Shown here: piece after piece, positions 15,928-16,758 of the stretch | How the letters are laid out: the number at the start of each line of letters is the position of its first letter | How positions within the stretch are numbered: the stretch's first letter is position 1 | Source: Cronobacter malonaticus LMG 23826 | GTDB taxonomy: Bacteria; Pseudomonadota; Gammaproteobacteria; Enterobacterales; Enterobacteriaceae | Direction of reading: 5' to 3' | Length of the DNA: 64,000 nucleotides | Assembly (NCBI RefSeq): GCF_001277215.2 | Contig: NZ_CP013940.1 | Location: 124,001 to 188,000 of the forward strand | Program-made: the position numbers and the translations under genes | Notes under the pieces: model-generated | The model's input: only the letters and a program-made list of their open reading frames with translations | Told to the model about the DNA's origin: nothing | Database searches by the model: none

Positions 15928-16758
15928 ATGTTGATGATTAACTCGTTTGACAACCCGCGTCTCGCGCAGGCGTTTGTTGATTATATGGCCACCCAGGGCG
16001 TGATACTGGAAATCCAGCGGCATGACACCTGGGATATCTGGCTTGCCGATGAGGCGCAGGCGGAAAGGGTCAAAGCGGAGCTGAGCTATTTTCTCGCGCA
16101 CCCGGGCGATCCGCGCTATCTCTCCGCGAGCTGGCAGACGGGGCAGCTGAACGCCGGTTTACAGTATCGCTCTTACCCATTTATGGCGAGCGTACGCGCC
16201 CACGCAGGCCCGCTGACGCTCGGCATGATGGCGCTGTGCATCGTCGCGTATCTCGCGATGAGCGTCATTGGTTCTCCGCAAGTGGCCGTCTGGCTTGCAT
16301 GGCCGTTCGATCCCTCTCTCAAATTTCAACTCTGGCGCTATGTCAGCCCGCTGCTGCTGCACTTTTCCCTGCTGAGCCTGATCTTCAATCTGCTATGGTG
16401 GTGGTATCTTGCCGGTCCGCTGGAGCGTAGCGTTGGCAGCGGTAAGCTACTGACATTAACGCTGGTGACAGCGCTGGTGGGCGGCGTTATCCAGTATCAG
16501 ATTGCCGGCCCGTGGTTCGGCGGTCTCGGCGGCGTAGTCTATGCGCTGGTCGGCTACGTCTGGCTGCGTGGCGAACGCGAGCCGGAAAGCGGGCTTTATC
16601 TGCCTCGCGGCATTCTGGTGTTTATGCTGCTGTGGCTCGCCATTGGCGGCCTGGGGCTGTTTGGCAACAAGACGGCGAATGCCGATCTGGTGGCGGGGAT
16701 GCTGATTGGTCTGGCGATGGCCATGACGGATACCCTGCATGCGCGAAAACGAAAATAA
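15928..16758 (+). CDS. glpG: GlpG-type rhomboid lacking the catalytic dyad (predicted pseudoprotease)
   Basis: In E. coli, GlpG is an intramembrane serine protease with Ser201 and His254. This protein has 276 residues, exactly the E. coli length, and aligns without gaps. The cytoplasmic N-domain, about six membrane helices, Trp136-Arg137 of loop 1, His145, Asn154, Glu166, Tyr205 and the GxxxG of helix 6 (257-261) are all kept. The catalytic positions are not: 201 is Gly (codon GGC at 16528-16530, GLGG instead of GLSG), 254 is Leu (CTG at 16687-16689), 150 is Ser and 141 is Pro. No stop or frameshift is present. A fold-retaining, proteolytically dead rhomboid is the simplest reading; the assignment as GlpG is secure by position between glpE and glpR. 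Confidence 0.93.
   Translation: MLMINSFDNPRLAQAFVDYMATQGVILEIQRHDTWDIWLADEAQAERVKAELSYFLAHPGDPRYLSASWQTGQLNAGLQYRSYPFMASVRAHAGPLTLGMMALCIVAYLAMSVIGSPQVAVWLAWPFDPSLKFQLWRYVSPLLLHFSLLSLIFNLLWWWYLAGPLERSVGSGKLLTLTLVTALVGGVIQYQIAGPWFGGLGGVVYALVGYVWLRGEREPESGLYLPRGILVFMLLWLAIGGLGLFGNKTANADLVAGMLIGLAMAMTDTLHARKRK

What the first reader, a model, noticed from the sequence alone, without database searches (positions are those of the whole stretch)
15928..16758. GlpG is a predicted rhomboid pseudoprotease: catalytic Ser and His are both replaced in an intact gene
The protein aligns without gaps to the 276-residue E. coli GlpG, so positions compare directly. Ser201 is Gly, His254 is Leu, the oxyanion His150 is Ser and His141 is Pro. 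Yet Trp136-Arg137, His145, Asn154, Glu166, Tyr205 and the helix-6 GxxxG are kept, there is no stop or frameshift, and the flanking glpE and glpR are normal. Loss of protease activity with the fold kept mirrors eukaryotic iRhoms and Derlins. I infer a non-proteolytic role, such as binding or guiding membrane proteins. I do not know of a described bacterial case in this operon.
Basis: partly seen in the sequence, partly recalled or inferred. Interest (0 to 1): 0.85.

Follow-up and report, generated by a model that had tools for sequence, protein, structure and literature searches.

The report
Cronobacter GlpG: dead protease, kept
A well-studied membrane-cutting enzyme has lost the parts it cuts with in the bacterium Cronobacter, yet the protein is still strongly conserved, which suggests it now does a job that needs no cutting.

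The parts
15928..16758 (+). glpG, 276 aa, predicted rhomboid pseudoprotease (stop 16756-16758)
15928..16185 (+). N-terminal cytosolic domain (residues 1-86), kept; omega 0.053 within Cronobacter
   Evidence: Pfam Rhomboid_N 94.9 bits; codon fit
16186..16755 (+). membrane part (residues 87-276); omega 0.082 within Cronobacter, 0.355 on the stem branch
16333..16338 (+). Trp136-Arg137 (WR motif), kept
16375..16377 (+). residue 150, AGC Ser instead of His (oxyanion role recalled)
16528..16530 (+). residue 201, GGC Gly instead of the catalytic Ser
16684..16689 (+). residues 253-254, GAT CTG Asp-Leu instead of Ala-His (catalytic His lost)
16600..16755 (+). residues 225-276: no amino-acid change among 7 Cronobacter genomes, 16 synonymous-only codons
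15523..15852 (+). glpE, 109 aa, full length, upstream neighbour
16784..17542 (+). glpR, 252 aa from a GTG start, full length, downstream neighbour
13783..15300 (-). glpD, divergent neighbour (start read as the ATG of METKDL)
   Evidence: same order in E. coli K-12

Best explanation
This is a genus-wide rhomboid pseudoprotease that descends from an active GlpG. On the stem of Cronobacter the catalytic Ser201, its partner His254 and His150 were replaced while the rest of the conserved scaffold was kept, so it should not cleave (strongly inferred). The protein has since been held under purifying selection, within this protein most tightly in the last helices, which carry the dead site (shown). 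Most likely it still recognises unstable or orphan transmembrane helices at its emptied pocket, and holds them or passes them to a processive protease such as FtsH, as YqgP does without its own activity (inferred by analogy). FdoH, a known GlpG client in Shigella, is kept and is one candidate. My rough split: catalytically dead 0.95; selected for a non-proteolytic job 0.85; client-handling or adaptor mechanism 0.5.
Against: Activity, partners and expression were not measured. HybA, another known client, has no orthologue-level match in 7 of 7 Cronobacter genomes, so lower demand for cutting could come from client loss. Rosenbergiella shows neither HybA nor FdoH (0 of 3), so FdoH cannot be the client common to both lineages. 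YqgP's adaptor role needed an unobstructed active site; whether Asp253 and Leu254 leave this pocket open is unknown. Over the whole gene, omega in Cronobacter (0.076 by NG86) is like a Citrobacter/Salmonella set (0.073) and above Enterobacter (0.038); the excess constraint at 194-276 and 225-276 is significant against the first set (p 0.0008, 0.0012) and not against Enterobacter (p 0.27, 0.12). One Cronobacter-type copy is frameshifted (P0005). Two glpR promoters lie inside E. coli glpG (PMC5442614, passages), so part of the constraint could act on DNA.
Confidence: 0.6

Rival explanations
1. A non-proteolytic role other than client hand-over: a structural membrane protein, a lipid-thinning scaffold, or a partner fixed to one specific complex.
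For: The predicted fold and the WR motif are kept. Rosenbergiella lost the catalytic His and shows neither tested client, yet keeps the protein at omega 0.031. The review reports lipid thinning by pseudoproteases (PMC12615303, passages).
Against: The C-terminal helices that carry the old active site are the most constrained part in Cronobacter (omega 0.020 at 194-276 against 0.060 at 1-86 and 0.175 at 87-129), which fits use of the old substrate site.
Confidence: 0.28
2. A decaying relic, kept only because glpG carries promoters or translation coupling for glpR.
For: Internal glpR promoters are reported in E. coli glpG (PMC5442614, passages). dS is lower at residues 225-276 (0.186 against 0.364 for the gene). 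One frameshifted copy, P0005. Faster stem, omega 0.317.
Against: omega within the genus is 0.073 and not above background (LRT 2.3, p 0.13). 111 synonymous-only against 31 amino-acid-variable codons in 276. No stop in 7 of 7. Decay would not be expected to spare 66 of 70 near-invariant positions.
Confidence: 0.05
3. Still a protease through a relocated nucleophile, for example the new Ser150 near the kept His145.
For: Ser150 is present and His145 kept in 7 of 7.
Against: No precedent in the passages seen. The TM6 base is gone. Rosenbergiella has Gln150 and Tyr254, so the two losses share no new site.
Confidence: 0.04
4. The catalytic loss predates Cronobacter: its glpG was replaced by a diverged homologue from an unsampled lineage. 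This concerns history and is compatible with the best explanation.
For: Stem dS of glpG is 0.69 (about 0.45-1.05 on a profile with the other parameters held) against 0.23 for glpR and 0.13 for glpE.
Against: Third-position divergence from Franconibacter is ordinary for glpG (0.47, against 0.46 between Franconibacter and Siccibacter). GC3 is native, and grouping with Franconibacter and Siccibacter is not rejected (AU p 0.44).
Confidence: 0.2
5. Sequencing error or private mutation.
For: None found.
Against: Same residues in 7 of 7 genomes and in P0002, the representative of a cluster of 161 member sequences (members not read one by one).
Confidence: 0.01

Closest known systems
E. coli GlpG (active rhomboid protease)
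   Same: Orthologue in the same glpE-glpG-glpR place, same length, gapless alignment, same predicted fold
   Different: No Ser201, His254 or His150
B. subtilis YqgP
   Same: A bacterial rhomboid whose adaptor role for FtsH does not need its catalytic activity (PMC7231995, passages)
   Different: YqgP is itself an active protease; the pseudoprotease behaviour was shown with an engineered S288A mutant
iRhoms (RHBDF1/2)
   Different: No iRhom homology domain or long cytosolic tail: 276 aa, gapless to GlpG
Derlins (Der1, Dfm1, Derlin-1)
   Different: Not a member: the Pfam scan at E 0.001 gives Rhomboid_N and Rhomboid only
Rosenbergiella GlpG
   Same: His254 and His150 lost, near-invariant scaffold otherwise kept, single rhomboid match in 3 of 3 genomes, omega 0.031
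   Different: Ser201 kept; His254Tyr, His150Gln; separate branch in the tree

Membership tests
GlpG orthologue group | Matches the curated GlpG models above cut-off over full length | tested here: met
   NF008155 434.7 bits and TIGR04239 363.1 bits
GlpG orthologue group | Place between glpE and glpR beside divergent glpD | tested here: met
Rhomboid fold | Six-helix rhomboid core | tested here: met
Active rhomboid protease | GxSG serine (201) in TM4 | tested here: not met
   Gly in 7 of 7 genomes
Active rhomboid protease | Catalytic His (254) in TM6 | tested here: not met
   Leu in 7 of 7 genomes
Active rhomboid protease | His150 and Asn154 of the oxyanion region (role recalled) | tested here: not met
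   His150 is Ser; Asn154 is kept
Rhomboid pseudoprotease (general kind) | Rhomboid fold, catalytic residues lost, gene kept under purifying selection | tested here: met
Rhomboid pseudoprotease (general kind) | Shown lack of proteolysis and a shown non-proteolytic role | not testable with these tools
   needs biochemistry and genetics
iRhom | iRhom homology domain | tested here: not met
   276 aa, gapless to GlpG; no further domain in the Pfam scan
Derlin | Match to the Derlin family model | tested here: not met
   Pfam scan at E 0.001 gives Rhomboid_N and Rhomboid only
YqgP-type FtsH adaptor | Binding to FtsH and presentation of clients | not testable with these tools
   no interaction data

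The most novel reading that the evidence does not exclude
The non-proteolytic, client-binding job is an old and separately selected function of GlpG in Enterobacterales. Cronobacter and Rosenbergiella are two natural separation-of-function experiments in which cutting was dropped and the adaptor job alone was kept, giving a bacterial counterpart of the route from active rhomboid to Derlin.
Probability: 0.35. Interest if true: 0.85.

Novelty: new variant of a known kind. Interest (0 to 1): 0.72.

Why it matters
GlpG is the structural model of intramembrane proteolysis. One 2020 paper still called its biological function in E. coli unknown (PMC7231995, passages), while its companion proposed quality control of orphan membrane proteins in Shigella (PMC7232013, passages). 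A genus that lives with a dead but conserved GlpG says that part of the protein's value does not lie in cutting. It offers a natural counterpart to the engineered YqgP S288A mutant and a bacterial test of how pseudoproteases such as Derlins may arise. Because the rhomboid family matched only once in each of the 7 genomes, the role could be studied without a second rhomboid in the background.

Tried and rejected
Private mutation or sequence error: rejected, 7 of 7 genomes. A second, compensating rhomboid: none found, 7 of 7 with one PF01694 match. Relaxed selection: rejected by codon fits. Loss of HybA as the trigger: weakened, because the four Franconibacter and Siccibacter genomes show no HybA either at E 1e-60 and their genera keep an intact GlpG. 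H141P as evidence of inactivity: dropped, 32 dyad-keeping sequences share it. Horizontal replacement: undecided.

Limits: the residue survey is not a random sample. The search for homologous proteins listed the best 120 of 552, 855 and 1612 hits; genome contigs kept the best 80 of 286 loci. Of 269 family genomes with a match I read residues in 91: 30 loci, 60 fetched, and L216. The 441-row reference leaves out the 20 rows lacking Ser201 or His254 and P0003, a partly duplicated sequence. So 201 and 254 are invariant there by construction and the hypergeometric value is only a guide; with all rows left in, 69 positions reach 98% and only Ser201 among them is changed in the window's protein, while 150 and 254 fall under 98%. 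Four or more changes among the 70 are not rare in themselves (11 of 441 dyad-keeping rows); their place is what stands out. The codon tree was built from glpE, glpR and glpG together, glpG included; of 27 loci gathered, E. coli K-12 (glpR pseudogene) and L079 were left out. Handles were named by inference: Franconibacter and Siccibacter from matching or near-matching loci, contig lengths and genus numbers, Rosenbergiella from GlpG identity to named proteins.

Full report
WHAT IS THERE. The ORF at 15928-16758 (+) encodes 276 residues. It is GlpG by two curated equivalog models and by Pfam Rhomboid_N plus Rhomboid, and it sits in the order glpD(-) glpE glpG glpR as in E. coli K-12. Against K-12 GlpG it aligns with no gap at 60.9% identity. 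The organism is a Cronobacter: a 12 kb piece of the assembly's second contig is 98.3% identical over its whole length to a C. malonaticus plasmid.

IT IS SHARED BY THE GENUS. The genome search holds 7 species genomes of this genus. All 7 have the gene, full length, without stops, 92-100% identical, and all 7 carry Ser150, Gly201 and Leu254. The rhomboid family PF01694 matches exactly once in each of the 7, so on this evidence these bacteria have no other rhomboid. Franconibacter and Siccibacter, among the closest relatives found, have an intact dyad (L018, L096, L077) and also a single rhomboid match in 4 of 4 genomes. Their sister position is not firmly resolved by glpG (Cronobacter plus Franconibacter 79/69). 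The loss therefore most likely falls on the Cronobacter stem, unless the gene was imported (below).

HOW UNUSUAL. I read 495 rows (173 loci, 322 proteins), 462 of them distinct. Twenty lack Ser201 or His254. Nine are Cronobacter-type: eight with Gly201 and Leu254, and P0005, which runs out of frame before residue 201 and ends at 256 aa. Eleven are Rosenbergiella and close unnamed kin, with His254Tyr and His150Gln but Ser201 kept. In the protein tree (quick method) the two groups lie far apart, each on a long stem (0.53 and 0.49 changes per site), so the catalytic His was lost at least twice. The survey covers best hits and is not random (see Tried and rejected).

WHAT CHANGED AND WHAT DID NOT. 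In 441 dyad-keeping sequences, 70 positions are at least 98% conserved. Each of the 7 Cronobacter genomes, and P0002, differs at 150, 201, 253 and 254 and at no other. Ten of the 11 Rosenbergiella-type rows differ at 150 and 254 and at no other; P0130 differs also at 145 and 253. Six residues named in PMC2989971 (145, 150, 154, 199, 201, 254; passages) are among the 70, and three of them are among Cronobacter's four changes (hypergeometric 0.0014; partly circular, since dyad-lacking rows were set aside first). With all rows left in, 150 and 254 fall under the 98% line. An earlier count on a smaller set (387 rows, repeats included) gave 80 positions and seven changes: 141, 150, 162, 201, 208, 253, 254. 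Among the 441 dyad-keeping rows, 367 show none of these 70 changed and 11 show four to six. Trp136-Arg137 is kept in 462 of 462.

SELECTION. The stem is faster (LRT 20.2, p 7e-6) but below 1 (LRT 16.1, p 6e-5); the clade is not relaxed (LRT 2.3, p 0.13) and is far from neutral (LRT 366). The stem excess lies in the membrane part (0.355, p 5e-5) and not in the N-domain (0.124, p 0.55). Stem omega is also high for glpE (0.312, p 0.018), though with little change (dN 0.042 against 0.219 for glpG); glpR is 0.078 (p 0.06). By NG86 the whole gene gives 0.076 in Cronobacter, 0.073 in a Citrobacter/Salmonella set and 0.038 in Enterobacter, so the dead protein is constrained like live ones and not more. 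Within Cronobacter, residues 194-276 are the tightest (0.020; 0.060 at 1-86, 0.175 at 87-129). In that stretch Cronobacter has 2 amino-acid-variable and 38 synonymous-only codons, Citrobacter/Salmonella 23 and 50 (Fisher p 0.0008), Enterobacter 6 and 39 (p 0.27). At 225-276 the counts are 0 and 16, 20 and 27 (p 0.0012), and 4 and 18 (p 0.12). dS is lower at 225-276 (0.186), so some constraint may act on DNA; two glpR promoters are reported inside E. coli glpG (PMC5442614, passages). Rosenbergiella, three genomes, has omega 0.031.

CLIENTS. In Shigella GlpG cleaves orphan HybA and FdoH, and a proline in the client helix is needed (PMC7232013, passages). HybA orthologues (70-91% identity) occur in 6 of 40 genomes of the relatives search, none of them among the 7 Cronobacter, whose matches are at 35-39%. 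None was found in 4 of 4 Franconibacter and Siccibacter genomes. FdoH is present at 90% identity in 7 of 7 Cronobacter, with Pro259 kept, and at 91-93% in the 4 Franconibacter and Siccibacter genomes. Rosenbergiella shows neither FdoH nor HybA (0 of 3). So loss of HybA does not by itself explain the loss of catalysis, and FdoH can be a client in Cronobacter but not the common client of both lineages.

MECHANISM. Shown: loss of dyad residues, single rhomboid match, purifying selection, kept WR and Gly257/Gly261, predicted kept fold. Inferred: no proteolysis; kept recognition of transmembrane helices; hand-over to FtsH or a holding role. The precedent is YqgP, whose S288A form still presents MgtE to FtsH and needs an unoccupied pocket (PMC7231995, passages), and Dfm1, which recognises clients through WR and GxxxG (PMC12615303, passages; the same review notes that yeast Der1 works with other residues there).

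HISTORY. Stem dS for glpG (0.69; about 0.45-1.05 with the other parameters held) exceeds that for glpR (0.23) and glpE (0.13), which could mean import of a diverged glpG. Against this, third-position divergence and GC3 are ordinary, and grouping with Franconibacter and Siccibacter is not rejected. This stays open.

WHAT IS IN PRINT. Searches for rhomboid, pseudoprotease, GlpG and bacteria, Cronobacter with GlpG or rhomboid, inactive prokaryotic rhomboids, Rosenbergiella with rhomboid and GlpG with catalytic serine and pseudoprotease gave, in the listings and passages seen, no description of a natural bacterial GlpG pseudoprotease. The one paper with Cronobacter and glpg concerns the drug GLPG0974. 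The nearest report is that B. subtilis YdcA lacks detectable activity despite all sequence hallmarks (PMC7231995, passages). The library holds open-licence papers only, so a subscription paper could exist. I read passages only of the papers named. PMC3237569 (passages) says inactivated rhomboids are known in eukaryotes and calls the dyad invariant in active ones; mycobacterial rhomboids keep the dyad (PMC2989971, passages).

VERDICT. It is a new variant of a known kind: a natural, genus-wide bacterial rhomboid pseudoprotease in the model GlpG lineage, with a second, separate loss in Rosenbergiella.

Noticed in passing
L177, L189, L216 (G372, G313, G159); P0122-P0130: Rosenbergiella and near kin: GlpG with His254Tyr and His150Gln, Ser201 kept, single rhomboid match in 3 of 3 genomes, omega 0.031; an independent loss of the catalytic His.
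   Followed up: partly
L173, L190, L191, L204 (L173 and L190 from genus g107): GlpG with the dyad kept but His145Gln and His150Gln and a long stem in the tree; activity may be altered.
   Followed up: no
P0222 and P0229: Two single GlpG sequences keep Ser201 and His254 but change His145 and His150, one also Trp236 and the other Tyr205; further lineages that may be on the way to inactivity.
   Followed up: no
P0005, 51.5 kb NCBI contig: A Cronobacter-type GlpG that runs out of frame before residue 201 and ends at 256 aa; sequencing error or a real broken copy.
   Followed up: no
G000-G006; G105, G215, G127, G229: No HybA orthologue found in 7 of 7 Cronobacter or in 4 of 4 Franconibacter/Siccibacter genomes, while FdoH is kept at 90-93%.
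   Followed up: partly
window 15928-16758 and flanks; L002-L008: Stem dS of glpG is 3-5 times that of glpR and glpE although third-position divergence looks ordinary; possible import of glpG before the genus radiated.
   Followed up: partly
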